Under the pieces are notes generated by a model. It ran no database searches and had not been told where the DNA came from. It saw nothing but the letters and a program-made list of their open reading frames with translations. The translations under genes and the position numbers were made by a program. A stretch of 64,000 nucleotides of DNA from Planctomycetota bacterium (GTDB lineage: Bacteria > Planctomycetota > UBA1135 > GCA-002686595), in the NCBI GenBank assembly GCA_016872795.1, contig VGYZ01000008.1:1-64000 (forward strand), given 5' to 3'. Positions 7,719-37,348 of this stretch are shown here, piece after piece. Each line of letters opens with the position of its first letter. Position 1 is the stretch's first letter.

Positions 7719-10700
7719 TCAGTCGAGCTTGATGCGCAGGTTGCGCTCGGGCTGGCCCGAGAGCGAGAGCGGCTTGGAGTCGCTCGAGCCCGCGTCATCG
7801 GTGGCCGTCACGCGGTACTTGCCCGGCGGCAGCGGCCCCAGCTTCTGCTCGGTCGAGGAGAAGCCCTCGGAGAACATCGTGCGGAAGCTCTCGGCGCTCA
7901 TCATGTTGCCGTACTCGCGGCCGGCGTCGTCGACGACGCGAATCGAGGCCCGCACGGGCTTGCCCTCGGCATCCTCGACCGCAACTTTCAGCATCGTGCC
8001 GCCTTGCATCACGAGCTCGACCGAGTTCGTTTCGCCGCTGCTCGCGCGCACGGGTCCGCTCTCGCGCGTCGTCTGCTGTTCGCGGCGCGCGCTCAAGGTG
8101 TAGGTGCCCGGCGAGGCGCCGTCGAACTTGAAGCGACCGTCGGTGTTGGTCATGCAGCTCGAGAGCGGGTTGATCACGCGGCCCGCGGAGTCGCGCACGA
8201 ACACGGCCGCGCCGCTGATCGGCTTGCCGTCGCCCGCGCGCACGATGCCCTCGATTGCACAGGGTGCCTCGAGTCGCACGACGATGTCGTCGCGGGACTG
8301 GCCCTCGGCGAGCTCGATCCCGGTCACGACCGCGGTGCCAAAGCGTGCGCTCTGTCCGAAGGCGCCCGCGAAGCCGGAGTTGCCGACGCGCAGCGTGTAG
8401 GTGCCCGGGCGCAGGTTCAGCAGCTGGAAGCTGCCATCCTCGGCGGTCTGCTGGCTGCGCCCCATGTCGAAGGCGAAGATCGTCGCGCGTCCTTCGCGCT
8501 CGGATGAGAGCGAGACATTGGCGGCCGGGGCGCCATCGGGACCGAGCACGCGGCCGCGGATCGCGCCCGCGGGCAATTCTAGATCGAGGCGGTGCTCGGG
8601 CACTTCGGGGATCGACTCCTGGAACTCGGTCGAGTCCGGATCACCCAAGCGAGCGCCGACCACGATCGAGTAGTCGCCGGCGGAGTCGAGCACCAGCGAG
8701 TAGCTGCCGTCCGGCCCGATCTTGGCCGTCTTCATCGATGAGAGCATCGTGTTGCCGTCGGCGAAGGCCATCACGAGGCCTTTCTCGAGCCCGCGCTCGC
8801 CCTGCAGCACGCGGCCGACGAGGCGCACCGGGTTCGCGGGCGGCGCGCCGAGCACGACGCGCGTCGTCTGCCCGTCGACGATCTCGACCGGCGTCATCTT
8901 GAGCTGCGACATCATGCCCGCGACATCGAACTCTCCGTCCGAACCCGCCGAGTTCGCCAGCGTGTTCATGCGCGGCATCGCCATCACATTGTACTTGCCC
9001 GGCGCGATGCGCTCGGCCACGAAGCGCCCGCTCGCATCGGACTTGGTGTTGCCGCCCATGTCGCCGCCGCCGGGACCGAAGTTGCCGACCATGATCTGGC
9101 GATCGGGGTCGGGGCGCCCGGTCGAGTCGTAGATCTCGCCTTCGAGGCGTCCGCCCATGCGCAGGCTGAGCGTGATGTCGCGCGCGCCGAGCACGGCGTC
9201 GACCGTGACCTCGAGCTCCGCACTCGGAGCCCACGCTTCGCTCGTCGCCGTGAGCGCCGCCATGCCGGGCGGCACATCGGCGATCGTGAAGCGACCCTCG
9301 GAGTCCGTCGTCGCGCTCTTGCCGCCCATGCGGCCGAACATGCCGCGGCCGCTCTCCTGCGAGTGGGTCACCTTGGCGCCCGCGACCGGCGTTCCGGTCG
9401 GAGCGAGCACGACGCCCGTGATCTCGCAGGTGCGCGCGAGCCGGAACTCGAGCACATCCGCGGACGGTGCGACCGCGCGGCGCGCGTCGGAGCGCGTGAA
9501 GCTCTCCGCCTCGGCGCGCAGGTCGTAGTTGCCGGGCTCGACGAACACCGTGAACGAGCCGTCGCTGCGGCCGCTGAAGCTCTTGGCGTCGCCGTCCTGA
9601 CGGAACATCGCGGCGAAGTCGCCGCCCATCGGCGGTCCGCCGCGCCCGTTGCTCGCGCTTCCAGCGGTGGCGACCGTCACGCGGAATGTCTCGAGCGGCT
9701 TGCCGGCGGCATCGAGCACGACCCCGCGGATCGGAGCGGGCTCTTGCAGCACCAGCTCGAGCGGCGCCGCGGCTTCGACGGGGCCCGCCTTGGCGCGCCA
9801 CTCCGCCGGGAACTCACCGATGGCCTTGCCCTGCGAGGCCGTCACGAGCACCGAGTCCGCGGAGATGCCGCCGCAGGAGAAGCGCCCTTGTTCGTCGGTC
9901 TTCACGCGCTCGCCTTCGCCGCCCATGGCGCGCATCGCGCCGCGGAAACCGCCACGCATGGCGCTGCGCATCGACTGCTGCGGGTCCTCCTGCTGGGCGG
10001 GCGCGATGCGCACCGTGGCGTCGGCGACCGGCGTGCGATCGGGCCACAGCACCACGCCGCTCACGGTGTGGCCAGCACCGAGCGCGAGCACCACGTTCTC
10101 GACGAGCTCGCTCTCGGCGAGCTCGAAGTCCTCGCGCACATGGTCGACATAGCCGTCGAGGGCCGCAGTCAGATCCGGCTTGCCCGGCGTGATGCCGGTG
10201 AGGTCGAAGGTGCCATCCGCTCCGGTGACCTGCGTGCGACCCAGCGCTCCGCGGATCCAGTCCATGCCGCCACCACCGCCGCCGCCGCTCGTGCGCACCT
10301 GCGCGCCCTTGGCGGGCGTTCCGTCCGGCAGCGTCACGATCCCGCGCACGCGCGCGCCCGCGGCGAGGCTGTAGGTCTTTTCGACATGCTCGCCCTCGCG
10401 TGCCGTGAGCTCGGCATCGATCACGGGCACCATCACCTGCGGGTCGATCGTGAGGAAGTAGTTCAAGCCCGCGCGCAGGCCGCCCGCGGAGAACGAGAGG
10501 TCCGGCGCGAGGCGTGCACTCGTGGTGTGGTTGCCGCCGCCCATGGACCAGCCGACGAGCACCGCGTCCACTTCGGCGAGTGCCGCGGGGTCGAAGCCCT
10601 GGGGCAGCCGCGCGGGCAGCACGACATTGCCCGTGAGCCAGCCGCCGAGCTTGGGCTCGAGCGAGACCGGCGCGGCCTCGGCGGGCACTTTCACTTCGAT

Positions 10701-11285
10701 GGGCTTCTGGAGGTAGCAGTAGCGCGCGCGCAGCTCGATCACCCCCACGGGCGAGTCCTTGGCGAAGCGCGCGAGGTATCCGCCGCGGCCGTCGGGCTCG
10801 CAGCGCATCGACAGCGCGCGCTCGTCCTTCGCCGCCCGGGTGCGGTCGCCGGAGAAGTTGCGGAACATCTGACCCATGTCGACGCCGGACGGATTCCAGC
10901 TCGACGCGGCGCGGCGCGCGGAGGCTTCGTCCTTGTAGGTGGAGAGCGGGAAGCTCGTGGCGACGAGCTCGGCGAGTTCGTCTGTGGGGACGCCCGCGGG
11001 GAAGAGCAGCGTCACCGGCACCATGTTGGAGTCGGCGCGCAGGCTCGCCTCGCGCTCGGCTCGCAGGTTGGTCTCGGCGACATCGGAACGCTGCTCGGAG
11101 GCCGGCGCGTCGGGCGCCGCGGCGGCGAGTTCGTCCGGCGCGGCGACCGCCATCCCCGGCGAGGCAACGGCGACCTCGGCGACGGCTTCCGTCGGCTGAA
11201 CAGGCTCGTGCCGCGGCCAGAGCACGGCGAGCGCGGCGAGCACGAGGAGCGGAATTGACCCGAGGAGCAGTTTTCGCTGGTTCAT
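7719..11285 (-). CDS. Giant carboxypeptidase-regulatory-repeat protein (copy 1)
   Basis: 1188 residues from the ATG at 11285, which begins MNQRKLLLGSIPLLVLAALAVLW, a clear signal anchor; the upstream extension of the frame is Arg-rich and rejected. After a low-complexity Ala/Pro/Glu linker, the rest is about eight tandem Ig-like CarboxypepD_reg/Cna-B-like repeats. Each has a G-x-V-x-x-P-D-G-x-P-x-x-x-A start and a DGRF...PGTYTL end. The protein ends SGQPERNLRIKLD, nearly the same as the paralogue at 33785. No enzymatic domain is visible. Such repeats act as extracellular structural or binding spacers; an envelope location is inferred. A TATCCT element lies about 88 nt upstream. Asp/Asn codons before Val are mostly GAT/AAT here, unlike in the paralogue. 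Confidence 0.85.
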   Translation of the reverse strand: MNQRKLLLGSIPLLVLAALAVLWPRHEPVQPTEAVAEVAVASPGMAVAAPDELAAAAPDAPASEQRSDVAETNLRAEREASLRADSNMVPVTLLFPAGVPTDELAELVATSFPLSTYKDEASARRAASSWNPSGVDMGQMFRNFSGDRTRAAKDERALSMRCEPDGRGGYLARFAKDSPVGVIELRARYCYLQKPIEVKVPAEAAPVSLEPKLGGWLTGNVVLPARLPQGFDPAALAEVDAVLVGWSMGGGNHTTSARLAPDLSFSAGGLRAGLNYFLTIDPQVMVPVIDAELTAREGEHVEKTYSLAAGARVRGIVTLPDGTPAKGAQVRTSGGGGGGGMDWIRGALGRTQVTGADGTFDLTGITPGKPDLTAALDGYVDHVREDFELAESELVENVVLALGAGHTVSGVVLWPDRTPVADATVRIAPAQQEDPQQSMRSAMRGGFRGAMRAMGGEGERVKTDEQGRFSCGGISADSVLVTASQGKAIGEFPAEWRAKAGPVEAAAPLELVLQEPAPIRGVVLDAAGKPLETFRVTVATAGSASNGRGGPPMGGDFAAMFRQDGDAKSFSGRSDGSFTVFVEPGNYDLRAEAESFTRSDARRAVAPSADVLEFRLARTCEITGVVLAPTGTPVAGAKVTHSQESGRGMFGRMGGKSATTDSEGRFTIADVPPGMAALTATSEAWAPSAELEVTVDAVLGARDITLSLRMGGRLEGEIYDSTGRPDPDRQIMVGNFGPGGGDMGGNTKSDASGRFVAERIAPGKYNVMAMPRMNTLANSAGSDGEFDVAGMMSQLKMTPVEIVDGQTTRVVLGAPPANPVRLVGRVLQGERGLEKGLVMAFADGNTMLSSMKTAKIGPDGSYSLVLDSAGDYSIVVGARLGDPDSTEFQESIPEVPEHRLDLELPAGAIRGRVLGPDGAPAANVSLSSEREGRATIFAFDMGRSQQTAEDGSFQLLNLRPGTYTLRVGNSGFAGAFGQSARFGTAVVTGIELAEGQSRDDIVVRLEAPCAIEGIVRAGDGKPISGAAVFVRDSAGRVINPLSSCMTNTDGRFKFDGASPGTYTLSARREQQTTRESGPVRASSGETNSVELVMQGGTMLKVAVEDAEGKPVRASIRVVDDAGREYGNMMSAESFRTMFSEGFSSTEQKLGPLPPGKYRVTATDDAGSSDSKPLSLSGQPERNLRIKLD

Positions 11286-11465
11286 GGCTGTGGGACAGGG
11301 CGGCGGGGGCCGCGGCGGAGAGGGGAGCCCTCCCATGCGGATGGGCGAGGGCAAACCCCGTGCCCTGCCGGACAGGATAGGGTCCCGCCCGAGGCGTGCG
11401 GCGCCGCGCACGCAAGCTCTACGCAAGGAACGGCCCGCAATGGTTGGCGCGCGCGCCCAAAAGGG

Positions 11466-11530: not shown

Positions 11531-14500
11531 CTAGGCCCAGACCACGAGGTCCGAGAAGCCGTCGTCGATGCCCTTGCCGGGGTGGGCGCGCACGCGCAGG
11601 CCGTAGGCGAAGTTGCCCGAACGAGCGAGCGTGTGGGTGCCGCTGAAGACCTGCGTGCGTCCCTCGGGCGCACCCTCGGCGCACAGGCGCACCGCGATCG
11701 GATTGCGCAGCTCGCCGGGCTGCTTCGAGTGGCCGAGCACGAGCTCGACATTCACATCCGCGGGCGCGAGCCCCGCGAGATCGACCTTGACGCGCGCTTC
11801 GACGGTGTCGCCGACGCGCAGGCCGCTGAGATCGGAGACCTGCGCCTCGCGGATCGCGACCTCGTGGAAGGCCTTGCGCAAGCGCGTGCGCGAGCTGGCG
11901 ATGTCGCGCGCCGCAGCGAAACGCTCGCGCGCGAGCTCGACCGAAGCAAGCGCCATGGGTGCATAGGCGCGGTCGCGATATTCGCTCACCATGCGGTCGG
12001 TGTTGAACTCCGCGGGCAGCGTGGCGAGCGAGCGCAGCGAGCGCTCGAGCCAGCGGCGCGGCACGCCTTCACCGTCGCGCTCGAAGTAGAGCGGCACGAG
12101 CTCGCGCTCGATCAAGTCGATGATGCTGCGCCCGTCGGTCTCGTCCTGCAGCACCGGATTGGGCCACACGCGCTCCTCGCCGACGGTCCAGCCGTTGTGG
12201 CCGTCGAAGCCCTCGATCCACCAGCCGTCGGCGATCGAGAGGTTCAAGCCGCCGTTGGCCGCCACCTTCATGCCCGAGGTGCCGCTCGCTTCAAGCGTGC
12301 GGACGGGGTTGTTGAGCCACACATCGACGCCCTGCACGAGCGCGCGCGCGAGTTCGATGTCGTAGTCCTCGAGGAAGTAGATCTTCCCCGCGAACTCGGG
12401 GCGGCGCGTGTACTCGACCACGCGGTGCAGGATCTTCTGACCCTCGCCGTCGCGCGGGTGCGCCTTGCCGGCGAAGAAGATGCGCACGGGGCGCTGCGCG
12501 TTCGACACGATCGACTTCAGTCGCTCGAGGTCGCGGAACAAGAGATCGGCGCGCTTGTAGGGCGCGAAGCGGCGCGCGAAGCCGATCAGGAGTGCGTCGG
12601 GGTCGAGGCCCGCGAGCACGGTCTGCATCATCGCCGGGCTGTCGTAGCGTTCGAGGAACGAGCGCTCGATGTTGACGCGCGCGTGGTCGAGCAGGCGCTG
12701 GCGCAACGCCTTGCGCACGGCCCACAGGGCCGCGGGCTCGAGCACGCGCGCGCGCTCGCCGAATTCCGCGCCGCTCACGGGATGGGCGCCGCCGCCGCAC
12801 AGGCGTTGGATCTGTGGGTGCATCCAAGACGCGAGGTGCACGCCGTTGGTGACCGACGTCACCGGCAACTCGGTGCGCAGCAGGCGCGGCCAGAACGGAC
12901 GCAGCAAGTCCTTCGAGACTTCCCCGTGCAGCTTGCTCACGCCGTTGACGAACCCGGCGAAGCTCATCGCGAGGTAGGTCATGTTGAAGTTGCTGCGATC
13001 GTCGGATGTGCTGCCGAGCGCCATGAAGCGCTCCCATGTGACGCCGAGCCAGCCCTCGATGTCGCTGAAGTAACGCCGCATCAGGTCCTCGCCGAAGCGG
13101 TCGTGGCCAGCGGGGACGGGCGTGTGCGTCGTGAAGACCGTCGTCGAGCGCACGACCTCGCGCGCCTCCTCGAATGTCAGGCCGTGGTCGCGGATCAGGC
13201 GCGCCGTGCGCGAGATCACGAGGAAGGCCGCGTGTCCTTCGTTGATGTGGAACACGCCGGGCACGACGCCCATGGCGCCGAGCAGCTTGACGCCGCCGCG
13301 GCCGAGCACGAGCTCTTGGCGCAGGCGCTGCTCGTGGTCGCCGCCGTAGAGCTGCTGCGTGATGCGGCGGTCCTCGGGGCGGTTCTTGTCGAAGTCCGCG
13401 TCGAGCAGGTACAGGTCGACGCGGCCGACGCGCGCGCGCCACGCGCGCAGGTGCAGGGTCGCGGACGGCAGCGGCAATTGAACTTCGAGTTGCTTGCCCT
13501 CGGCGTCGCGCACGAGCTCGAGCGCCAGGTTGCGCGGGTCGTTGTCGGCTTCGAGCGCGAGCTGATCGCCGTCGGCGCTGATCTTCTGGCGCAGGTAGCC
13601 CGCGCGGTAGAACAGGCCGATGCCCACGAGCGGCAGCGCGAGATCGCTGGCGGACTTCAAGTGGTCGCCGGCGAGGATGCCCAAGCCTCCCGAGTAGACC
13701 TTGAGCGACTCGTGGATGCCGAACTCGGCGCAGAAGTAGGCCACGGGATGGTCGGGCGTGAGCGCGCCGAAGCGCTGCGTGGACTTGGGCGCCATGTAGG
13801 CGTCGAAGCGCGCGAGCACGCGGCGCAGCTTGGCCACATAGCCGGAGTCCTTGGCGCGCGCGGCGATGTCCTCGGGGAACGCCATGCGCAGGAACAGCAC
13901 CGGGTTGTGACCGGCGGAGTCCCAGCCGACTTGCGAGATCTCCTCGAACAGCGAGGGACCCTCGGGATCCCAGCACCAGTACAGGTTGCGCGAGAGGCGC
14001 TCGAGCCCGGTGAGCGCTTCCGGCAGCGTCGCCGAGACCTCGAACGAGTACAGGCGCGGCCGCGCGCCTTCGACACTCGCCGCGACCGTCATGGCGACGC
14101 GCGGGCGGAAGCGAGCCATGGGCCGGCCCTCGATGCGCGCCGCGACGGCCGCCAGCGAGCGTTCGAAGGCGGTGTAGTAGCGCTCGACCAAGCCCGACCA
14201 CGCCGTGCGCTGGGCCGTCTGGCGACAGGCCTCGACCACGCCCGCGCGACCGATTTCCTCGGCTACGAAGCGCTCGATCCAGCGGCCGAGCTCGGTCGCC
14301 GCGGCCATGTCGTCGATCTTGCTGCGCTCGAGCAGCCACACGCCGTCGCCCGGCCCGAGCTTCTCGCCCTTGGCCCACAGGCCGAAGCCCGCGAGATCGG
14401 TGGTGACGGTCGGCACGCCGACCGTGAGGCTCTCCTCGGGCGTGTAGCCCCAGGGCTCGTAGAACGACGGGAACAGCGACAGGTCGACGGCGCGCAGGAC

Positions 14501-15742
14501 CGCCTCGTAGGGCAGGTCGAGGAAGCCGTCGGACTTGTGCAAGTAGATCGGGACTTGGATCAGCGTCACGCGCGCGCCGACCGAGTTGGTGAGGCCCAGC
14601 CGCAGGGCGTTTTTCTGGATCGGGTCGTTCTCCGGATCGATCAGGTTGTGCGTGGAGAGGCCGAGCGCATCGCTGGCCGGCGCATCGGGGTGCGCGAGGC
14701 GCTCGCGCAGGGCCTGCGAGAGGCCCGTCTGCCCGGCGGGCACGGCGAAGAACGCGACCACCTCGCGGCCGGGGCGCGCGTTGACTTGGGCGAGCGACTC
14801 CATCAGGAGGTCGAGGCCCTTGTTGTGGAACTCGTAGCGGCCCGAGGCCAGCAGGAAGGCGGCGTTGGAGACATCGCGGCCGAGGAAGCGCGAGGCGAGC
14901 GCGGACAGGCGGCGGCGCGCCTCGGGGCGCAGCACGGGGCCGGCGAGCTCGTCGATCACGGCGAGGTCGATGCCGTTGGGGAGCAGCGGATCGGCGCGGC
15001 GTCCGAGCAGCAACTCGGTCTCGCGCGCGGTGATCTCGCTCACCGTCGTGAACACATCGGCCTTGCGCGCGCAGGTCGACTCCATCGAGTGCTTGGAGCG
15101 CACGCCGCAGTCGGTGGCGGCCTGCTCGGGAGTGCGGCCCGCGAGGCCTTCGGCCGGTTCCTTGCCGCCGTGGCCGAGGCTGCGGCCGAGGATCGTCGCG
15201 TGGGTGGTGAAGACCGTGCCGACAGCGGGCAGCTTGGACTGCAGGTAGAGCAGGCCCGAGCCCGTCATCCACTCGTGGAACTGGGCGACGGCGTGGCCGG
15301 TCGTGCGCGAGACGCGCTCTTGGCACCAGCGCTCGATCACCATCGCGGCGGCCCAGCCGAACATCACCGGTTCGTCGTAGTCCCAGCCGCCGGTGAGCGA
15401 ATCGACCCCGTGGCTCGTCCACAGGTCGGCGAGGATGTCGTTCTTGCGCGCGTACAGGCCGGTGAACTCGACCAAGATCGTCAGCGGCCGACCGGGGATC
15501 TGCCAGCGGCCGATGCGCACGGGCACGCCCATCTCGCGACAGGCCTGCGCGAAGCCCTCGTGGCCCGGCTCTTCCACGAACACATCGCTCGACTCGCGCT
15601 TGCCGAGCAGCCACGGCCCGATGACGACATATTCGTCGCTCAAGCGCGCGACGAGCGTCTTGGCCTTGGTCGAGATGACGGTGTGGATGCCGCCGACCTT
15701 GTTGCAGACTTCCCAACTGACTTCGAAGAGGGTGAAGCTCAC
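11531..15742 (-). CDS. Fused glycogen synthase (GT3-like) / alpha-glucan phosphorylase (GT35)
   Basis: 1403-residue fusion read from a GTG at 15742 that overlaps the upstream stop (GTGA). Residues 1-545 resemble eukaryotic-type glycogen synthase: FEVSWEVCNKVGGIHTVIS at the N-terminus, FHEWMTGSGLLYL and TTHATILGRSLG in the middle, and PSFYEPWGYTPEES late. Residues about 565-690 match the DUF3417 start of bacterial GT35 phosphorylases (LERLSRNLYWCWDPEGP). The phosphorylase core follows, with YSGGLGILAGDHLKSASDL, VTNGVHLASWMHP, and EASGTSGMKVAANGG carrying the pyridoxal-phosphate lysine (about 1157). The C-terminal 100 residues are beta-rich. The synthase half extends alpha-1,4-glucan and the phosphorylase half releases glucose-1-phosphate, so one chain would carry opposing activities. 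It is the last gene of the operon. Confidence 0.9.
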   Translation of the reverse strand: MSFTLFEVSWEVCNKVGGIHTVISTKAKTLVARLSDEYVVIGPWLLGKRESSDVFVEEPGHEGFAQACREMGVPVRIGRWQIPGRPLTILVEFTGLYARKNDILADLWTSHGVDSLTGGWDYDEPVMFGWAAAMVIERWCQERVSRTTGHAVAQFHEWMTGSGLLYLQSKLPAVGTVFTTHATILGRSLGHGGKEPAEGLAGRTPEQAATDCGVRSKHSMESTCARKADVFTTVSEITARETELLLGRRADPLLPNGIDLAVIDELAGPVLRPEARRRLSALASRFLGRDVSNAAFLLASGRYEFHNKGLDLLMESLAQVNARPGREVVAFFAVPAGQTGLSQALRERLAHPDAPASDALGLSTHNLIDPENDPIQKNALRLGLTNSVGARVTLIQVPIYLHKSDGFLDLPYEAVLRAVDLSLFPSFYEPWGYTPEESLTVGVPTVTTDLAGFGLWAKGEKLGPGDGVWLLERSKIDDMAAATELGRWIERFVAEEIGRAGVVEACRQTAQRTAWSGLVERYYTAFERSLAAVAARIEGRPMARFRPRVAMTVAASVEGARPRLYSFEVSATLPEALTGLERLSRNLYWCWDPEGPSLFEEISQVGWDSAGHNPVLFLRMAFPEDIAARAKDSGYVAKLRRVLARFDAYMAPKSTQRFGALTPDHPVAYFCAEFGIHESLKVYSGGLGILAGDHLKSASDLALPLVGIGLFYRAGYLRQKISADGDQLALEADNDPRNLALELVRDAEGKQLEVQLPLPSATLHLRAWRARVGRVDLYLLDADFDKNRPEDRRITQQLYGGDHEQRLRQELVLGRGGVKLLGAMGVVPGVFHINEGHAAFLVISRTARLIRDHGLTFEEAREVVRSTTVFTTHTPVPAGHDRFGEDLMRRYFSDIEGWLGVTWERFMALGSTSDDRSNFNMTYLAMSFAGFVNGVSKLHGEVSKDLLRPFWPRLLRTELPVTSVTNGVHLASWMHPQIQRLCGGGAHPVSGAEFGERARVLEPAALWAVRKALRQRLLDHARVNIERSFLERYDSPAMMQTVLAGLDPDALLIGFARRFAPYKRADLLFRDLERLKSIVSNAQRPVRIFFAGKAHPRDGEGQKILHRVVEYTRRPEFAGKIYFLEDYDIELARALVQGVDVWLNNPVRTLEASGTSGMKVAANGGLNLSIADGWWIEGFDGHNGWTVGEERVWPNPVLQDETDGRSIIDLIERELVPLYFERDGEGVPRRWLERSLRSLATLPAEFNTDRMVSEYRDRAYAPMALASVELARERFAAARDIASSRTRLRKAFHEVAIREAQVSDLSGLRVGDTVEARVKVDLAGLAPADVNVELVLGHSKQPGELRNPIAVRLCAEGAPEGRTQVFSGTHTLARSGNFAYGLRVRAHPGKGIDDGFSDLVVWA

Positions 15743-17052
15743 GGATGCCTGTTGGGTGCGAGGTTGGGCGCGGGGGCGGGGGAGCCCGCGGACGCCTGCG
15801 TCCGGGGTCCGTTGGGTGGGACGAGCGTGAAGGGGCTGGGAGTGGCCGCAAGCGCCTCGAGCCCGTTGCGCACCTCCCGGGACAGGTCCTCGAAGACATT
15901 CATGAACGAGATGAACGCGTCGTGGGGGGTGGCGTACGGGCTGAAGTACTTGTGTACATCCCCATCGGAGAACCACTTCGTACACATGTAGTAGACGTGG
16001 TCGGAGGTCGAGAGCCGCCGCCACTTCTGGTACGGTCCTTCCACTCCGTGCTCGGCAAGTTTCTGGACTTCGCCCAGCAGGCCGTAGAGCGCCTCGTGGG
16101 CGGCCTTCTGCATGGGGTTGCCCAGCCATGCGGTCAGGTCGCGCTCGGCGTCGGCCCAACTGATGGGACGCGGGATGTCGAGGCGCGCCACGGGGTCGAG
16201 GGCCTCGGCGACCTCGGAGGGCGTGCGGAATTCAAGTGCGCCCGTGGAAAGGCAGGCGGCCGGAAGTTCGCACATGAAGCGGAAGATGCCCGTTTCCTCC
16301 CACTGATGCTCGCCGAAGGTCTCGTAGTCCATGAACAGGCCCACGAAGCGCTCATTCTCGCCGAGGCCGGCGAGCCAGCGCGCGAAGCGCTCGGCGGGCA
16401 GCGGGTACTCGGGCCAGCTCTTGTTGGAGAAGCGGAAGGCGATGTCGTCGCTGTAGCGATACGAGCGCAGGAGCAGCTTGATGCGCTCGCAACCCTCGGG
16501 GCGGTAGACGCGATGCGGGCTGCGCCAGCCGAGCAGCTGGTCGGCGCCTTCCCCGAGGATCGCGCGGAAGCCCAGTCCCTCCGCGCGGCGCGCGATCTCG
16601 TTGGTGATCACGAGCTCGGTGTTGCGGAAGGTCGTCGGACGGCGGCCGAAGAGCTGCTCGATGCGCGCAGCCTGATCGAGCACCTGCGCGTCAAACTCCT
16701 TTACGGAGGCGAGCGCCGCGAGCGAGTGGTGCGAGGTCTCGCCGATAAATTCGACGCAGCCCGTGGCCGCGAGTTTTTGGAAGCTCTCGATCGCCTCGGG
16801 TACCCAGCGCTCGAATTGGTCGAGCGCGGCACCCGAGATCGAGTACGACACACGGAAGCGGCCTGCGTGGCGCTCGACTTGCTCGAGCACCTGCGCGTTC
16901 ATCGGCAGGTAGCACTTCTCCGCGACGCGGCGCACGATGCGCGCGTTCTCGGCGTCGTCGAACCACTCCTTGCCCGATCCGATGTCGAAGAAGGTGTAGT
17001 GCCTCAGTCGCCAGGGCTGGTGCACCTGGAAGTAGAACACGATCGAGCGCAT
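15739..17052 (-). CDS. GH57 family alpha-amylase-like glucanase
   Basis: 437 residues beginning MRSIVFYFQVHQPWRL, a standard GH57 start. The catalytic nucleophile is E146 in FRNTELV and the acid/base is D242 in MDYETFGEHQ; GETSHH at 104-109 is another conserved GH57 site. GH57 enzymes cleave or rearrange alpha-1,4-glucans by a retaining mechanism; amylase versus branching activity cannot be decided from sequence alone. No signal peptide, so it probably acts on cytoplasmic glycogen. The last ~40 residues are Pro/Ala-rich. The stop overlaps the GTG of the next gene by 4 bp. It sits 67 bp downstream of the GT4 gene, and GH133-GT4-GH57 order is a recurrent bacterial glycogen-gene arrangement. Confidence 0.9.
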   Translation of the reverse strand: MRSIVFYFQVHQPWRLRHYTFFDIGSGKEWFDDAENARIVRRVAEKCYLPMNAQVLEQVERHAGRFRVSYSISGAALDQFERWVPEAIESFQKLAATGCVEFIGETSHHSLAALASVKEFDAQVLDQAARIEQLFGRRPTTFRNTELVITNEIARRAEGLGFRAILGEGADQLLGWRSPHRVYRPEGCERIKLLLRSYRYSDDIAFRFSNKSWPEYPLPAERFARWLAGLGENERFVGLFMDYETFGEHQWEETGIFRFMCELPAACLSTGALEFRTPSEVAEALDPVARLDIPRPISWADAERDLTAWLGNPMQKAAHEALYGLLGEVQKLAEHGVEGPYQKWRRLSTSDHVYYMCTKWFSDGDVHKYFSPYATPHDAFISFMNVFEDLSREVRNGLEALAATPSPFTLVPPNGPRTQASAGSPAPAPNLAPNRHP

Positions 17053-17119: not shown

Positions 17120-18592
17120 TCAGGCGTGTGCGACCTCGCGGTAGACGCACTCGAGAACCCCCGCGCGCTCTTCCCAGCTCATGGCGCGCACTTCCTCGCG
17201 GCCGGCGTCGAGCAGGTGCTCGCGCAGGGCGGGATAGCGCAGCAGCGCGAGGATCTTGTTGGCGATGTCCTGCACGTCCCAGAAATCGACCTTGAGCGCG
17301 TTGCGCAGCACTTCCGACACGCCGCTCTGGCGCGACACGATCACGGGCACATCGAGGGCGAGCGCCTCGAGCGGCGAGATCCCGAACGGCTCGGACACCG
17401 ACGGCATCACATAGATGTCGGCGAGCGAGTAGATGCGCTCGACATCGGCGCCCTTGAGGAAGCCGGTGAAGTGCATGTTGCGCGCGAGTCCCATGCGCGC
17501 GGCGCGCTCGATCATCTTGGGCAGCATGTCGCCGGAGCCGACCATCACGAACTTGACGCGCGGCTCGACGGCCACGACGCGCGCGGCGGCCTCGAGGAAG
17601 TAGTCGGGGCCCTTTTGGAATGTGACGCGGCCGAGGAACAGCACCACCGGCTCGGGGATGTGCCGCTGGCTGCCCGTGGCGCGGGCCTGATCGCTCTTGT
17701 TGACGGCGTTGTGCACGACGCGCAGCTTCGATTCGTCGACGCGGTAGCGGCGCGCGAGCTGCTGCGCGGTGTAGTGGCTGACGCACACGACGCGGTCGGC
17801 GTGATCGAGGCCGAGCTGCTCGAGGTCGCGGATGCGCGTGTCGGGATGGTCCCCGGAGCGGTCGTACTCGCAGGCGTGCACATGGCAGGCGAGCGGGCGG
17901 CCGAGTGCGCGCGCGGCCGCGATCCCCGCGGGAAATGTCATCCAGTCGTGCGCGTGCACGAGGTCGAAGTGCTCGCGGCGCGCGAGCGCGGCAACGCAGC
18001 GCGCGAAGCGCTCGACCTCGCCGAACAGCTCACCGCCGTAGCGGCCGGTGAATTCGAGCGTGCGACGCGCGTGGCGGCGCACTTCGACCTGAAGGAGTCG
18101 TTCGATCTCGGAGTCCTCGCCGCTCGAGCGCTCGATCGTGACATCGCGCTCGGGGGTTCGACGCGCGCTCGTGCTTCGCACACCCGTGCGCGCGTGCGGA
18201 GCGAGCGTCGCGAGCCACCCGTCGAGCGTCGCGGGGGTGGCGTATGCCGAGGGCTGCGGCGCGTCGGCGGGCGGCAGCACGAAGCTCGGCCGTTCTCCCG
18301 GCTCGGCATGCGCGAACTCTCTCGTTTCGAGTTGCGCGCTCTCGGCGCAGCGGCCGTGCACGCGCTCGCGCACGCCGACCGTCTCGCGCTCGCTCCACTC
18401 GTCGTCGACTTCGATCTCGTTGCAGCCGACCACGCGCACGAGGCTCTGATCCTCGTCCCCGTGGGCGCGCGGGATCACGAACGTCACATCGACGCCGTGA
18501 CGGTGCAGGCCCTCGCACAATCCCGCGCAGGCCGTCGCCAGTCCGCCGGTGATGTGCGGTGGGAATTCCCACCCCAGCATCAGGACTCTCAT
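17120..18592 (-). CDS. GT4 glycosyltransferase, glycogen-operon type
   Basis: 490 residues from the ATG at 18592, which overlaps the stop of the debranching enzyme (ATGA). GT-B fold: N-terminal Rossmann half starting MRVLMLGWEFPPHITGGLA, then FDLVHAHDWMTF and ADRVVCVSHYT. The C-terminal donor-binding half has VVLFLGRVTFQKGPDYFLEA, and VMPSVSEPFGISPLEALA with the conserved glutamates of GT4 retaining transferases. An unusual ~110-residue Glu/Arg/Ser-rich insertion (about 65-175) separates the first strands from the rest. Context argues for a role in alpha-glucan synthesis, possibly priming or elongation alongside the GT3-like domain two genes on, but the donor and acceptor are not proven. Confidence 0.88.
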   Translation of the reverse strand: MRVLMLGWEFPPHITGGLATACAGLCEGLHRHGVDVTFVIPRAHGDEDQSLVRVVGCNEIEVDDEWSERETVGVRERVHGRCAESAQLETREFAHAEPGERPSFVLPPADAPQPSAYATPATLDGWLATLAPHARTGVRSTSARRTPERDVTIERSSGEDSEIERLLQVEVRRHARRTLEFTGRYGGELFGEVERFARCVAALARREHFDLVHAHDWMTFPAGIAAARALGRPLACHVHACEYDRSGDHPDTRIRDLEQLGLDHADRVVCVSHYTAQQLARRYRVDESKLRVVHNAVNKSDQARATGSQRHIPEPVVLFLGRVTFQKGPDYFLEAAARVVAVEPRVKFVMVGSGDMLPKMIERAARMGLARNMHFTGFLKGADVERIYSLADIYVMPSVSEPFGISPLEALALDVPVIVSRQSGVSEVLRNALKVDFWDVQDIANKILALLRYPALREHLLDAGREEVRAMSWEERAGVLECVYREVAHA

Positions 18593-20622
18593 CGCCTGCG
18601 GCTCTCGATCTCGGCGGCGAGGGCGCGTGCGCGCAGGATCTCCGAAGTGCTCCACGCCTGAGCGAAGGAACCGCCCGGACGATGCGGCGGATCTCCGTCG
18701 TACACCTCGCTCACGTGGTTCAGCCCGTGCGAGCGCGTCTCTTGCTCGAGGCCCGCGAGCAGCGCGCGCAGGTGCTCCGCCGTGCGGCGATTGCGCGGAT
18801 GGCAGCGCACGTAGGCCTCGCAGTGGAAGCCGAGCAGCCACGGCCAGGCGGTGCCCTGATGGTAGGCGCGGTCGCGTTCGAGCGGACCGCCCGCGTAGCG
18901 ACCTTGGTACGCCCGATCGCGGGGGCCGAGCGTGCGCAGGCCGCGCGGGGTGACGAGTTCGAGCTCGGAGCGCACGACGATGTCCGCGCGCTGCGCTTCG
19001 GAGAGGGGCGAGAACTCGAGCGCGGCGGCGAGCACCATGTTGGGCCGCACGCGCGTGTCGGCGACGCCGTCCTTCCATGTGTCCGCGAGATAGCGCGCTC
19101 GCGGGAGCCAGAAGCGCTCGAGGAACGCCTTGCCCGCGCGCTCCTTGCACGCCTTCCAGTGCTGCGCCTGGTCCTTGTCGTGCGCTCGCGTGGCGAGCTC
19201 CTCGAGGTACGCGAGCAGGAAGTACCACAGCGCGTTCAACTCGACCGCGAGCCCGTCGCGCGGCGTGACGGCGACTCCGTCGGCGACGGCGTCCATCCAA
19301 GTCGCGTTGAGCTTGCCGTCGCCCGCGAGCAGCAGCCCGGCCTCGTCCGCTCGCAGGCCCAGACCCGTGCCCTCGGCGTAGCGCGTCGCGATCTCGACCA
19401 GCGCCGCGCGCAGCGGCCCCTCGACCGTCGCGGCGTCACCGCCCGAGTGTTCGTACAGCCGCACGGCGCGCGCGAACCACAGCGATGCATCGACGGAGCC
19501 GTAGTGGCTCGCTGCGACGCTCGAGCCGAAGATGTTGGGCAACAGGCCGTCCTTGAGGAACGGCAGCACGCCCAAGAGCGCTTCCCCGCACTCCGCGACG
19601 CGGCCGCGCGCGAGCAGCAGGCCCGGCAGCGCGAGGAACAGGTCGCGGCCCCACTCGGTGAACCACGGGTAGCCCGCGATCACGCCGAGGCGCCCCGTGC
19701 GCGTGCGGAACAGGAAATCCTCGGCGCCGAGTTCGAGTCCAGCGGCGCCGGTGGCGCGCGCGGCTTCGAGGCTCTCGACGCGGCGGCGGGCGTGTTCGTC
19801 CCACAGGGCCGCGAGGTCGTCGGGCGGAAAATCGAGCGAAGCGCACAGCACGACGCTCTCGCCGGGGCGCAGGCGGATGCGGAACTGGCCCGGGCTGAAG
19901 TTGTCCTCGCGGTCGTCGTAGCCGCGCTCGCGGTCGGCCTTGTACTCGATGTCGCGATACCACACCGGATCGGCTTCGAACGCGCCTTCGCGGGCATCGA
20001 GCGCGACCGCCATCGCGGGCAGGCCGGGGTAGGGGCGCACGACGATCGAGCGACGCGTCGCCGTGGCGTAGCGCACTTCCGAATGCAGGTCGACATTCTC
20101 GACCGTGAGGGCATCGGCCTCGCGGAAGGCGAGCAGCGGTCGCACGCGCAGCTCGAGCTCGTCCTCGCCGCCTTCGAGCGTGTAGCGCACGAGCACGGTG
20201 GGGGAGCCGCGCGTCATCTGGATCGCGCGCGTGACGCGCGCCTCGCCGAAGCGGTGCGTCGACACGGGGAACGGCGCGAGCTCGAAGCGCTCGAGCGTCG
20301 CGTGGCCGCGCGGATGCCAAGTGCCGGGATAGCGCGCCATCGAGAGCGGGAAGTGGCCCTCGCCCGCCGGCCCGAGCGGCGTCTTGTCGAGCGCGTGCAC
20401 GCTCTCCTCGAGGCGCGAGAGGAACACGTGGCGCTTGTCCGTGCCCGGAAAAGTCGAGACCAAGAGCCCGTGGTAGCGGCGCGTGGGACACTGCAGGACC
20501 GTCGACGACGCGTAGCCGCCGAGGCCATCGGTCTCGAGCCATTCGCGAGTCAGGGCGAAGTCGAGCTCGAGCAGGCGCTCGCGCTCGATGGTGAGGAGCG
20601 GCTGGTTCAGGAGAGTGTCCAT
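18589..20622 (-). CDS. Glycogen debranching enzyme (amylo-alpha-1,6-glucosidase, GH133)
   Basis: 677 residues from the ATG at 20622; a GTG immediately before it (20625) is an equally possible start. The N-terminal domain carries EWLETDGLGGYASSTVLQ and RRYHGLLVS. The C-terminal (alpha/alpha)6 barrel contains WFTEWGRDLFLALPGLLL and NATWMDAV, the active-site segments of bacterial GH133 debranching enzymes. It hydrolyses alpha-1,6 branch points of glycogen so that phosphorylase can continue. It is the first gene of the operon. A TAGCCT element at 20641-20636 lies 13 nt before the ATG and could be the operon promoter. The 125-bp gap to the divergent vWA gene holds promoters in both directions. Confidence 0.92.
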   Translation of the reverse strand: MDTLLNQPLLTIERERLLELDFALTREWLETDGLGGYASSTVLQCPTRRYHGLLVSTFPGTDKRHVFLSRLEESVHALDKTPLGPAGEGHFPLSMARYPGTWHPRGHATLERFELAPFPVSTHRFGEARVTRAIQMTRGSPTVLVRYTLEGGEDELELRVRPLLAFREADALTVENVDLHSEVRYATATRRSIVVRPYPGLPAMAVALDAREGAFEADPVWYRDIEYKADRERGYDDREDNFSPGQFRIRLRPGESVVLCASLDFPPDDLAALWDEHARRRVESLEAARATGAAGLELGAEDFLFRTRTGRLGVIAGYPWFTEWGRDLFLALPGLLLARGRVAECGEALLGVLPFLKDGLLPNIFGSSVAASHYGSVDASLWFARAVRLYEHSGGDAATVEGPLRAALVEIATRYAEGTGLGLRADEAGLLLAGDGKLNATWMDAVADGVAVTPRDGLAVELNALWYFLLAYLEELATRAHDKDQAQHWKACKERAGKAFLERFWLPRARYLADTWKDGVADTRVRPNMVLAAALEFSPLSEAQRADIVVRSELELVTPRGLRTLGPRDRAYQGRYAGGPLERDRAYHQGTAWPWLLGFHCEAYVRCHPRNRRTAEHLRALLAGLEQETRSHGLNHVSEVYDGDPPHRPGGSFAQAWSTSEILRARALAAEIESRRR

Positions 20623-20720
20623 CACGGCGGGGGGCAGGCTACGGCGAAACGCCCGCCAACTGAAGCCGCACGGTGTCGCAGGGATGGAAAATCGAGGCGC
20701 GCGGGCCCGCGGACAGTGCC

Positions 20721-33784: not shown

Positions 33785-36700
33785 CTACAGCCGCACATTG
33801 AGCTTGCGCTCCGGCTGGCCCGAGAGCGTGACCGGCTTGGTTTCCTTGCGGCCGTCCGGCGCGCTCACGATCACCCGATACTTGCCGGGCGAGAGCGGGC
33901 CCACGCGCTGTTCGCGGCTCGACAACTCGCCGGCCGACATGGCCTCCATGATCTCCGCGATCGAAACGACGCCGTGAACCTCGCGGCCCGCGTCGTCGAG
34001 CACGCTCAACGCAGCCTCGACTTGACTGCCGTCCTCGTTGCTGACGGTGACGAGCAGCAGGGTCGCCGCGCCGAGCACGAGCTCCACGTTCGCGGCTTCG
34101 CCCGCGCGGACGAGCACGCGCGCGCGACCGTCGCTCGCGAGCCCGCTCTTGCGGGCGGAGAGCGTGTACTCGCCGGCTGCGAGTCCGTCGTAGGTGAAGC
34201 GACCCGCGGAGTCCGTCGCGAGCATCGACAGGCGCTCGAGCGGACGACCCGCGGCATCGCGGACGAACAGCGCCGCTTCCGCAATCGGAGCACCATCGGC
34301 GCCTCGCACGATGCCGCTCACGCTGCCCGCCGCGTGCAGCTCGAAGTCGACGCCCTCCGTCCGCGCGCCTTCGCTGACCGCGATGCCCTCGCGCAGCTGG
34401 CGTCCACCGCGCGCGCTGCCTCCGAGCAGGCCGCCGAGCGGCGCGCCGCCGATCGCGACGGTGTAGCGGCCGGGCGCGAGCCATACGAGCTCGTAGCGAC
34501 CGTCGCCATCGGTCTCGACTTCCGCGTAGTTGTCGCCGAACAGCGAGCCCAAGGGCATGGGGCCGTCGTTCGTGAGCGTCACGCGCACGCGCGCCGCCCC
34601 CGAGCCATCGCTCGCGCGCACGCGGCCCGCGATCGCGCCCACGGGCAGCTCGAATTCCTGCTGGAACGACGCTGTTTCCGGCGCGACGAAGCGCTGCGTG
34701 ATCGTCTGCTGCTGTCCCGCGCTCCCCGGCTTCTGCAGCGAGGCGAAGTAGGACCCGGGGCTGTCGAGCGTGACCGCGAAGCGACCGTCCTCGTCGCTGG
34801 TGGCGAACTTGAACGCGCTCTGCGCCGCGCTTTCCCCGGCGCGCCGATCCCGCAGAATCGAGATCACGACTCCGCCGACGCCGCGTCCGTCGCAGGTGAC
34901 GCGTCCCGCGAGCTCGACCGCGTCCTTCGCGGGCGCGCCCAGCACGACGTGCACGGTCTCCGACTCGACGACGACTGCGCTCGCGAGCAGCATGCCCGTG
35001 AGCATCGCCGCCGCATCGGGCTCGCTCTCGGTGCCGCTGCGCGACTTGGCGCGAGAGCCCGGAAAGTGCATCACGTTGTAGCTTCCGGCCGTCAAGTGCT
35101 CGACGCGGAAGCGACCGTCACGGTCGCTGTTCACGAAGCGCTGCGAGAGCGGGTCGGACGCGAGTTGCAGCAACACCTGCGCGCCCGCGGCCGGCGTGCC
35201 GTCTTTCGCGTACACCTCGCCCGTGAGCGTGCCGCCGAGCCGGAGCGTGAGCAGCACGCTGGAAGTCTCTTCACCGCTTCGCACCTCGACTTCGACCGCC
35301 TCGCTGCCGGCCGTGCCGTCGGCGCGCGCGACGAGCTTGTGCTGTCCAGCCGCCAAGTTGGAAAGGCGGAAGCTGCCATCCGCGAGTGAGCTCGCGACGA
35401 CAGGCTGCGTCGTGCTTTGTTCCGCTTGGCTCACGACATTCTGCAAGTTGGCCGCGACCTGCACGCTCGCGCCCGCGACCGGCACGCCGGCGAGGTCGAC
35501 CACGAGTCCGCTGACGCTGCCGCCGCGCTGGAGCACGATCACGACCTCGGGAGCCGACGGTTCGCCCGGCAGCGCCACGGACAGGTCCGCGCGCGTGAAG
35601 CCATCCGCAGTGGCCGAGAGATCCCACTGGCCGCGCTCAAGGTCGTCGAAGCGGAAGCGGCCGGGCTCGGCACCCTCGCGCGCGATCTCCGTGCGCCCGC
35701 CGAGTCCGCGGACGACGCCGCCCACATTTTCCATGGCGCGCACCTTGGCCTTCGCCACGGCCATGCCGCTGGCATCGACGACGCGCAGGTCCAAGGCGAG
35801 CGGCGCCGCGAGCACGAGCTCGAGCGTGCGTCCGCCGGGAGTCACGCCGCCTTCGCTCGCGCGGTGCTTGCTCGCTCCGGGCTCGGGCGCAGCGCTCGCG
35901 CTCACGAGGAAGGGTCCCTTGCCCAGTCCGACGATGGTGAAGCGACCCTCCGTATCCGCCACCGCCTCGCCGCGCGCGCCCTGCATGGCGTTGAGCGCGC
36001 TCATGCCGCCGAGCGCGGCTGGATCGAAGTCAGCGCGTACGGTCGCGTTCGCCGCGGGGCTTCCATCGGGCCAGCGCACCACGCCGCTGAGAGTCGCACC
36101 GCGTTTCAGCACGACGTCGCCGAGCTCCGTGCGTTCGCCGTCGCGCACCGTGCAGGCGAGCGTGCGCTCGAGCACGCCGCGACCTGCGAAGGCGAGGTCC
36201 ACTTCACCGGCGAGCACGGCGCCGAGCACGAAGCGACCTTCCGCGTCGCTCGAGCCCTTGCGCACCTCGAAGCCGCCCTGTCCGAAGACGAGCGGATCGA
36301 CGGAGGCCGCCAGCGTGGCGTCGGCGATCGCAACGCCGTCGGCATCGACCACGCGTCCGGCGAGCTCGCCGCCGCGCGTGAGCACCGCATCGAGCGCGAT
36401 GTGCAGCCCCGGCCGAATGTCGACGCGCTCGCCCTTGAACGCCGCCAGCGTCTCGCACCGCACGCGCAGGTCGCGCGCGAGGCGCGAAGCCACGCCGCGA
36501 AACTCGTAGCTGCCATCCGAGCGCGGATGCGTCGTGGGAGCGCGCAGCCCGACGGGCGGATGCGCGCCGCCCGCGAGCGCGAGTGCGTCGAACATGAGCT
36601 CGAGCTCGCAGGCTCGCACATCGAGGCCGCTCGCATCGACGCCCGCTGCGACGAGGACACGCCCCGTGACCCAGGCGCCGAGCTCCGGCGCGAGTTCGAG

Positions 36701-37234
36701 CCCGACTCGCGCGTCCTCGGCCTGCAGCCGTCGCGGCTCGGCGAGGAACACATAGCGTCCGCGCAGGTGCAGCCACGTTCCGTCGGCGAGGTCGCGCCAG
36801 GGCAGGCGAAACGATCCGTCAGGATCCACTGCGGCGCGAGCGAGGATGCGCGCGTCGTCCGCGAGCTCGTCCTCGTTGGCATCGCGCAGCTCGTCGTTCC
36901 GGCGAGCTTCCCGTCCGAGCACGAGCACTTCCGCGCTCTCGTCCGCCGGGGTGCCCACCGGCCAGAGCACGCGCCCCGCGAGCTCGACCACCGCGTTCTC
37001 AGCGCGAACCTCCTGGGCCACGCGCTCCGGCGCAGCCCTCTCGTCCGTTGCAGGCGCCTCGAGCGCTCCGTCCTGAGCTCCGCGGGAGCCGTCGCTCGTC
37101 TCCGCACGCGTCGCCGTCGCCTCTGCGGCAGTCTCGACCGCCTCCGCACCCGGTCGGTGCGCGATCCAGAAGTAGGAACCCAGCGAGAACAGCAGCGACA
37201 GTCCGAACAGCCACCACGCGACCTTGTTGCGCAT
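33785..37234 (-). CDS. Giant carboxypeptidase-regulatory-repeat protein (copy 2)
   Basis: 1149 residues from the ATG at 37234, beginning MRNKVAWWLFGLSLLFSLGSYF, a signal anchor. After an Ala/Glu/Thr linker there are about nine Ig-like CarboxypepD_reg repeats, for example GVVRWPDGSPAANATV, GLVVDLAGVPVAGASV and GEVYAKDGTPAAGAQV. The end, SGQPERKLNVRL, and the preceding VGPLSPGKYRV repeat are clearly related to the protein at 7719, so the two are paralogues. No catalytic domain is seen. Unlike copy 1, it often uses AAC-GTG, GAC-GTC and CAC-GTG, so ACGT sites are common. An envelope structural or binding role is inferred. Confidence 0.85.
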   Translation of the reverse strand: MRNKVAWWLFGLSLLFSLGSYFWIAHRPGAEAVETAAEATATRAETSDGSRGAQDGALEAPATDERAAPERVAQEVRAENAVVELAGRVLWPVGTPADESAEVLVLGREARRNDELRDANEDELADDARILARAAVDPDGSFRLPWRDLADGTWLHLRGRYVFLAEPRRLQAEDARVGLELAPELGAWVTGRVLVAAGVDASGLDVRACELELMFDALALAGGAHPPVGLRAPTTHPRSDGSYEFRGVASRLARDLRVRCETLAAFKGERVDIRPGLHIALDAVLTRGGELAGRVVDADGVAIADATLAASVDPLVFGQGGFEVRKGSSDAEGRFVLGAVLAGEVDLAFAGRGVLERTLACTVRDGERTELGDVVLKRGATLSGVVRWPDGSPAANATVRADFDPAALGGMSALNAMQGARGEAVADTEGRFTIVGLGKGPFLVSASAAPEPGASKHRASEGGVTPGGRTLELVLAAPLALDLRVVDASGMAVAKAKVRAMENVGGVVRGLGGRTEIAREGAEPGRFRFDDLERGQWDLSATADGFTRADLSVALPGEPSAPEVVIVLQRGGSVSGLVVDLAGVPVAGASVQVAANLQNVVSQAEQSTTQPVVASSLADGSFRLSNLAAGQHKLVARADGTAGSEAVEVEVRSGEETSSVLLTLRLGGTLTGEVYAKDGTPAAGAQVLLQLASDPLSQRFVNSDRDGRFRVEHLTAGSYNVMHFPGSRAKSRSGTESEPDAAAMLTGMLLASAVVVESETVHVVLGAPAKDAVELAGRVTCDGRGVGGVVISILRDRRAGESAAQSAFKFATSDEDGRFAVTLDSPGSYFASLQKPGSAGQQQTITQRFVAPETASFQQEFELPVGAIAGRVRASDGSGAARVRVTLTNDGPMPLGSLFGDNYAEVETDGDGRYELVWLAPGRYTVAIGGAPLGGLLGGSARGGRQLREGIAVSEGARTEGVDFELHAAGSVSGIVRGADGAPIAEAALFVRDAAGRPLERLSMLATDSAGRFTYDGLAAGEYTLSARKSGLASDGRARVLVRAGEAANVELVLGAATLLLVTVSNEDGSQVEAALSVLDDAGREVHGVVSIAEIMEAMSAGELSSREQRVGPLSPGKYRVIVSAPDGRKETKPVTLSGQPERKLNVRL

Positions 37235-37348
37235 GGCGGCATCCTCAACGAAACCCGTGCCAGCTTTCCATGGGGCGTAGTGCGCGCCGTCCGCGTCGCG
37301 CCTGAGCAACTTCCGCCCACGCGTGCCTGCAGCGCCCGCGCGCGGCGG

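What the first reader, a model, noticed from the sequence alone, without database searches (positions are those of the whole stretch)
11531..15742. Glycogen synthase and phosphorylase fused in one chain
A GT3-like synthase (about 1-545) and a full GT35 phosphorylase with DUF3417 start and PLP lysine share one polypeptide. Opposing synthesis and breakdown activities on one chain imply tight local control or a chain-length-remodelling machine. I believe related fusions exist in other phyla, but they seem little studied.
Basis: partly seen in the sequence, partly recalled or inferred. Interest (0 to 1): 0.5.

Follow-up and report, generated by a model that had tools for sequence, protein, structure and literature searches.

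The report
Glycogen synthase and phosphorylase in one protein
Many planctomycete bacteria join the enzyme that builds glycogen to the enzyme that breaks it down in a single protein, whereas the gut Bacteroides relatives examined keep the two as neighbouring separate genes, which offers a simple way to study how a cell balances storing and spending sugar.

Summary
Confirmed. Window 11531-15742 (minus strand, 1403 aa) encodes a GT3 glycogen synthase (about 1-535), a variable linker and a TIGR02094-type GT35 phosphorylase. There is no stop, and the expected catalytic residues are intact in both halves. It is no assembly accident: 35 of 80 loci in a named-genome scan and 36 of 392 phylum genomes, in 11 families, carry it in one frame, usually after debranching-enzyme and GH57 genes. 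Four Bacteroidales records keep the two enzymes as adjacent genes 27-73 bp apart. Trees put both halves with the Bacteroidales proteins, not with the phylum's stand-alone enzymes. The synthase half lacks the eukaryote-type tetramerisation segment and usually most glucose-6-phosphate arginines, so that switch is unlikely. Best reading: two independently active enzymes tethered for equal amounts and shared location on glycogen. Chain remodelling, or separate translation of the second half, is not excluded. Eight full-text searches of the held library listed no paper on this fusion. New variant of a known kind.

The parts
11531..15742 (-). Fused GT3 glycogen synthase - GT35 alpha-glucan phosphorylase, 1403 aa, GTG start overlapping the upstream stop (GTGA)
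14138..15742 (-). GT3 half, residues about 1-535; H181, R187, R302, K308, E429, E437 intact
14054..14137 (-). Variable linker, residues about 536-563; model confidence below 50 at 540-571
11534..14053 (-). GT35 half with DUF3417 start (573-680), TIGR02094 core 667-1262, PLP lysine K1159
15739..17052 (-). GH57 family enzyme (437 aa); the only strong GH57 match in the genome; activity (branching, glucanotransferase or amylase) not settled
17120..18592 (-). GT4 glycosyltransferase with weak similarity to glycogen synthase and alpha-maltose-1-phosphate synthase; start inferred from the first Met of the conserved part
18589..20625 (-). Glycogen debranching enzyme, GDE_N + GDE_C

Best explanation
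It is a bifunctional glycogen enzyme. The first half adds glucose from a nucleotide sugar to the non-reducing ends of alpha-1,4 chains. The second half removes or, reversibly, adds glucose there through phosphate and PLP. The two are separate folded modules joined by a flexible tether. The fusion most likely serves to place both on the same glycogen particle in equal amounts, as the last gene of a cluster that usually also supplies debranching and GH57, and often GT4, activities. Net direction would be set by supply of nucleotide sugar versus phosphate and by expression, not by the glucose-6-phosphate and phosphorylation switch of eukaryotic glycogen synthase. Shown here: one open frame, expected catalytic residues, conservation, cluster, closeness to the Bacteroidales proteins, loss of most of the eukaryotic switch. 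Inferred: activity of each half, donor sugar, particle co-location, purpose of the tether.
For: Both halves score far above curated cut-offs and align to solved enzymes. Among 85 fused loci compared besides the window (68 distinct strings among the 86 rows), the six GT3 sites are kept in 84-85; each GT35 site tested is kept in at least 71 of the 72-73 loci that cover it, the two glycines in 85 of 85. The linker is the longest low-confidence stretch of the model (540-571 under pLDDT 50), with mean pLDDT 84.0 but pTM 0.56. In four Bacteroidales records the same two genes are adjacent, GT3 first, 27-73 bp apart. One GT3 and one TIGR02094 protein were found in the genome.
Against: I saw no activity, expression or structure data for any fused member. 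The genome also has GlgC and two ADP-glucose-type GlgA proteins, so the fusion is not its only likely synthase and its donor sugar is open; no GalU above cut-off was found, though a UDPGP-family protein is present. No GH13 or GH77 was found, so the branching step depends on the unassigned GH57 or on genes missing from a 91% complete assembly. GT4 is missing from the cluster in 16 of 32 named loci. M542 with its upstream GAGG could allow separate translation of the second half in this genome. Low pTM may partly reflect cutting the model at residue 1200.
Confidence: 0.58

Rival explanations
1. Chain-length-remodelling machine: the phosphorylase half trims or extends chains that the synthase half is making, so that the fusion sets glycogen chain length during synthesis rather than merely co-locating opposing enzymes.
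For: Phosphorylases are reversible (review PMC11046441, passage seen); debranching, GH57 and often GT4 genes sit in the same cluster; the fusion is found in 11 families.
Against: Nothing here measures chain length; the linker is variable in length and sequence and the low pTM gives no confident arrangement of the halves.
Confidence: 0.2
2. The synthase half is mainly a glycogen-binding tether or primer-making part for the phosphorylase, with little synthase activity of its own.
For: The genome has other candidate synthases; the half lacks the eukaryotic tetramerisation segment.
Against: H181, R187, K308 and E437 are kept in 85 of 85 fused loci, R302 and E429 in 84, which a mere tether would not need.
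Confidence: 0.1
3. The phosphorylase is also, or only, made as its own protein, by an internal translation start or by cleavage in the linker. (Raised from 0.07.)
For: In the window M542 is an ATG with GAGG just upstream; L005 shows the same, and L033 has a GTG at that place after GAGGAG. M542 is kept in the near relatives L004-L007. The linker is flexible in the model.
Against: L004, L006 and L007 keep the ATG without such a stretch, and over 56 distinct linkers 13 have a start with one, against 362 of 1120 random windows of the same genes. The Met is not shared by the more distant rows of the alignments printed.
Confidence: 0.1
4. Assembly or binning artefact.
For: All 35 fused records of the named scan are metagenome-assembled genomes by title.
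Against: 35 of 80 named loci from several projects and 36 of 392 phylum genomes have the same single frame; 32 of 32 translated loci have no internal stop.
Confidence: 0.01

Closest known systems
Bacteroidales adjacent gene pair: GT3 glycogen/starch synthase followed by alpha-glucan phosphorylase (Bacteroides finegoldii NZ_OY725918.1, Phocaeicola massiliensis OY725982.1, Prevotella sp. oral taxon 299 NC_022111.1, Parabacteroides distasonis NZ_OY725812.1)
   Same: Same two enzymes in the same order, 36.6-37.7% identical over 96-98% of the fusion; both lack the long eukaryotic GT3 segment; both group with the fused halves in trees
   Different: Two separate genes with 27-73 bp between stop and ATG; in B. 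finegoldii and P. distasonis debranching-GT4-GH57 form a separate cluster
Eukaryotic glycogen synthase (human GYS1, yeast Gsy2)
   Same: GT3 family and the same active-site residues
   Different: The human enzyme has a tetramerisation domain and a glucose-6-phosphate arginine helix (PMC9287172, abstract and passages seen); the fused GT3 lacks the first and most of the second
Segatella copri glycogen phosphorylase (PDB 9l6i)
   Same: Best match to the GT35 half by sequence and by fold search
   Different: Stand-alone chain of 852 residues; I saw no paper for it
Stand-alone GT3 of other Planctomycetota (18 of 61 GT3-bearing genomes)
   Same: Glycogen_syn family
   Different: Separate gene, keeps the long segment and most of the arginine helix, separate clade

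Membership tests
GT3 glycogen synthase (PF05693) | Profile match above curated cut-off | tested here: met
   283.6 bits against 27
GT3 glycogen synthase (PF05693) | Active-site residues: E-x7-E pair, R and K of the GRYEF-NKG motif, H and R of HAT-x2-GR (roles recalled from yeast and human enzymes) | tested here: met
   E429, E437, R302, K308, H181, R187; 84-85 of 85 fused loci
Eukaryotic-type regulated glycogen synthase | Glucose-6-phosphate arginines (human R579, R582, R586) | tested here: not met
   Of 60 distinct fused GT3 sequences 1 has all three, 11 two, 37 one, 11 none; 0 of 4 Bacteroidales have more than one; of 18 stand-alone planctomycete GT3s 12 have three and 6 two
Eukaryotic-type regulated glycogen synthase | Tetramerisation segment | tested here: not met
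   Residues in the interval: median 24 (fused, 12-28), 25 (Bacteroidales), 71 (stand-alone, 71-74); Pfam model positions about 350-400 are skipped in the fused matches listed
GT35 alpha-glucan phosphorylase, TIGR02094 type | Profile match above curated cut-off and DUF3417 start | tested here: met
   751.7 bits against 191.7; DUF3417 573-680
GT35 alpha-glucan phosphorylase, TIGR02094 type | PLP lysine and phosphate-site residues (roles recalled from rabbit and E. coli enzymes) | tested here: met
   Of 72 fused loci that cover the site: K1159 in 72, R1057 71, R1058 72, K1063 72, E1151 72, S1153 71
Both families | Measured enzyme activity | not testable with these tools
   needs expression and assay

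The most novel reading that the evidence does not exclude
The single chain is an old, conserved glycogen-turnover machine in which synthesis and phosphorolysis act on the same chain ends to set glycogen chain length without glucose-6-phosphate control, and the neighbouring synthase and phosphorylase genes of gut Bacteroidales are its split descendants. In the phosphorylase trees one fused planctomycete (G293) groups with the Bacteroidales, and a single fused clade is rejected (AU p 0.001 with LG; 0.020 with a mixture model and fewer rows), but those rows share an unusual composition and the synthase tree does not resolve the point.
Probability: 0.15. Interest if true: 0.65.

Novelty: new variant of a known kind. 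Interest (0 to 1): 0.42.

Why it matters
Synthesis and breakdown of glycogen are textbook opposing activities, usually kept on separate proteins and separately regulated (general knowledge). A single-chain form spread over at least 11 families of one phylum, with a two-gene counterpart in Bacteroidales, gives a natural experiment on what tethering does to glycogen structure and turnover. It also suggests that a glycogen/starch synthase gene next to an alpha-glucan phosphorylase gene in Bacteroidales should be read as a functional pair.

Tried and rejected
Assembly error or missed stop: rejected. Internal start: not rejected for this genome, not favoured over the set; an earlier statement of mine that no Shine-Dalgarno-like stretch precedes the linker ATGs was wrong and is corrected here. 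Regulation by the eukaryotic glucose-6-phosphate switch: rejected for most fused members; a first column-by-column count in that gappy helix was off register and was replaced by a count anchored on the invariant tryptophan. Misbinning of the G293 contig that groups with Bacteroidales: its GC (0.411) matches four other stretches of the same genome (0.364-0.426; two more read N), and its GH57 and debranching enzyme score higher against the best planctomycete proteins than against Bacteroidales ones, so it is not supported, but composition may bend the tree. Fission versus two fusions: left open. PDB search with the GH57 gave nothing. A second protein of the genome with a weak GH57 match (31.6 bits, cut-off 21.2) also matches GH38 mannosidase domains, so I read it as GH38-like.
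Full report
What is there. The GTG overlaps the stop of the upstream GH57 gene in the four bases GTGA. The frame stays open further upstream, but the conserved protein begins here: of 32 translated relatives, 9 matches begin at a start codon (GTG in L004-L009, L011 and L033, ATG in L022) and 23 begin a few residues in. Pfam finds Glycogen_syn, DUF3417 and Phosphorylase in that order, and NCBIfam finds TIGR02094 over its full length. Third-position GC is 0.90-0.96 in each of 14 blocks of 100 codons.

Are both halves intact? Aligned with solved enzymes, the synthase half has the E-x7-E pair (E429, E437), R302 and K308, and H181 and R187. The phosphorylase half has G685-G686, H873, N966, R1057-R1058, K1063, E1151, S1153-G1154 and the PLP lysine K1159. 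The roles of these positions are recalled from the yeast, human, rabbit and E. coli enzymes. Among 85 fused loci besides the window (68 distinct strings among the 86 rows), each synthase site is kept in 84 or 85. The two glycines are kept in 85; each other phosphorylase site is kept in at least 71 of the 72 or 73 loci that cover it. The four departures lie in four different loci.

One protein or two? There is no stop in the linker. M542 is an ATG with GAGG just upstream, also in L005, and L033 has a GTG there after GAGGAG; L004, L006 and L007 keep the ATG without such a stretch. Over 56 distinct linkers 13 have a start codon with a Shine-Dalgarno-like stretch, against 362 of 1120 random windows of the same genes. 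An internal start is therefore not a general feature, but it cannot be excluded in this genome.

How common is it? A scan of named genomes kept 80 loci (of 147 relatives found); 35 (L004-L038) carry both halves in one frame and 45 carry the phosphorylase only, two of these cut at contig edges. I translated 32 of the 35 (L008 is cut by its contig end) and none had a stop. By title 33 of the 35 are planctomycete and two give no phylum. Among 61 genomes (own and near relatives) 44 matched, 26 of them over the full length. Among 392 genomes of the phylum, 226 matched the profile and 36 of these carry the full-length fusion in one frame, in 11 families (only two candidates per genome were scored, so this may be low). 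A search for GT3 in the same 392 found 61 genomes: 18 with a stand-alone, eukaryote-like GT3, and 43 with the fused type. These are the 36 plus G060, G131, G254 and G427 (pieces on two contigs), G303 and G320 (cut) and G087 (a 1251-codon frame without the last part). The other 331 genomes of the sample gave no GT3 match at the threshold used.

Cluster. In the window the order of transcription is debranching enzyme, GT4, GH57, fusion. One group (L130, L134, L148) lacks the GH57 and GT4 neighbours.

Bacteroidales. A protein search of plasmid records found 117 records, four of which, all Bacteroidales, cover 96-98% of the fusion at 36.6-37.7% identity. In all four the two halves are separate neighbouring genes, synthase first, with 27, 38, 35 and 73 bp between stop and ATG. 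Most of these 'plasmids' look like chromosome pieces (inference from their names and content). B. finegoldii and P. distasonis carry debranching-GT4-GH57 in that order on other records, and the Prevotella record has debranching and GH57 about 1.3 kb apart; no such record of P. massiliensis was among the rows listed. P. distasonis also shows a second phosphorylase without a GT3 beside it (L108); a second P. massiliensis record with a phosphorylase-only match was listed but not opened.

Trees (unrooted). In the synthase tree the 18 stand-alone planctomycete GT3s form one side and the fused plus Bacteroidales rows the other (10 stand-alone rows). In the quick phosphorylase tree the fused and Bacteroidales rows, including the unpaired copy L108, stand apart from 39 single phosphorylases (support 94); in the careful tree the 17 singles form one side (94/98). 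G293 groups with the Bacteroidales, and holding all fused rows together is rejected (p 0.001; p 0.020 with a mixture model and fewer rows). Because those rows share an unusual amino-acid make-up, I treat fission in Bacteroidales as possible, not shown.

Regulation. Human GYS1 has a tetramerisation domain and a regulatory helix whose Arg579, Arg582 and Arg586 form the glucose-6-phosphate site (PMC9287172; abstract and passages seen). In the interval that holds the tetramerisation segment, fused GT3s have a median of 24 residues, Bacteroidales 25 and stand-alone planctomycete GT3s 71. Of 60 distinct fused sequences 1 has all three arginines, 11 two, 37 one and 11 none; of 4 Bacteroidales 3 have one and 1 none; of 18 stand-alone ones 12 have three and 6 two. 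The fused type therefore probably lacks that switch; other control is not excluded.

Shape. A model of residues 1-1200 (25 sequences; the last 203 residues had to be left out) has mean pLDDT 84.0 and pTM 0.56, with residues 540-571 below 50. Fold search ranks Segatella copri glycogen phosphorylase first and yeast and human glycogen synthase next. This fits two modules on a flexible tether, though the cut end also lowers pTM.

Genome setting. The genome (162 contigs, 91% complete) has one GT3 and one TIGR02094 protein, GlgC, two ADP-glucose-type GlgA proteins, a UDPGP-family protein, no GalU above cut-off, no GH13, no GH77 and one strong GH57. The donor sugar and the branching enzyme are thus open questions.

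Literature. Eight full-text searches of the held library bore on the fusion; two more were on other points. None of the titles and abstract openings listed describes a GT3-GT35 fusion (one search listed 20 of 30 papers). Only the review PMC11046441 was opened for it: 12 of 20 places were shown, and about 300,000 of 445,374 characters are held. It discusses GT3 enzymes of PVC, Bacteroidetes and DPANN and some other fusions; the passages shown do not mention this one. That sequence databases already list such two-domain proteins is likely and was not checked.

Verdict. A real, widely conserved fusion of two known enzymes, best read as tethered, independently active modules; new variant of a known kind.

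Noticed in passing
window 7719-11300 (-) and 33785-37309 (-): Two large proteins with six and seven carboxypeptidase-regulatory-like stretches.
   Followed up: no
own genome G000: No GH13 and no GH77 match found despite GlgC and two GlgA proteins, so the usual branching enzyme and 4-alpha-glucanotransferase seem absent from the 91% complete assembly.
   Followed up: partly
L196 8171-9010, L197 7821-8645: Short 'glycogen/starch synthase' genes (about 275-280 codons) near the Bacteroidales debranching cluster, perhaps the GT5 fragment mentioned in PMC11046441.
   Followed up: no
L120 5376-9017: Fused protein in a 1251-codon frame lacking the C-terminal part of the phosphorylase half.
   Followed up: partly
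G131:C318:7-2178: Fused-type match with two TAG codons inside; broken gene, frame problem or contig error.
   Followed up: no
G022:C1:3892860-3895046: Phosphorylase without GT3 in the same family as the window's genome, within a 1245-codon open frame; no GT3 match in this genome.
   Followed up: no
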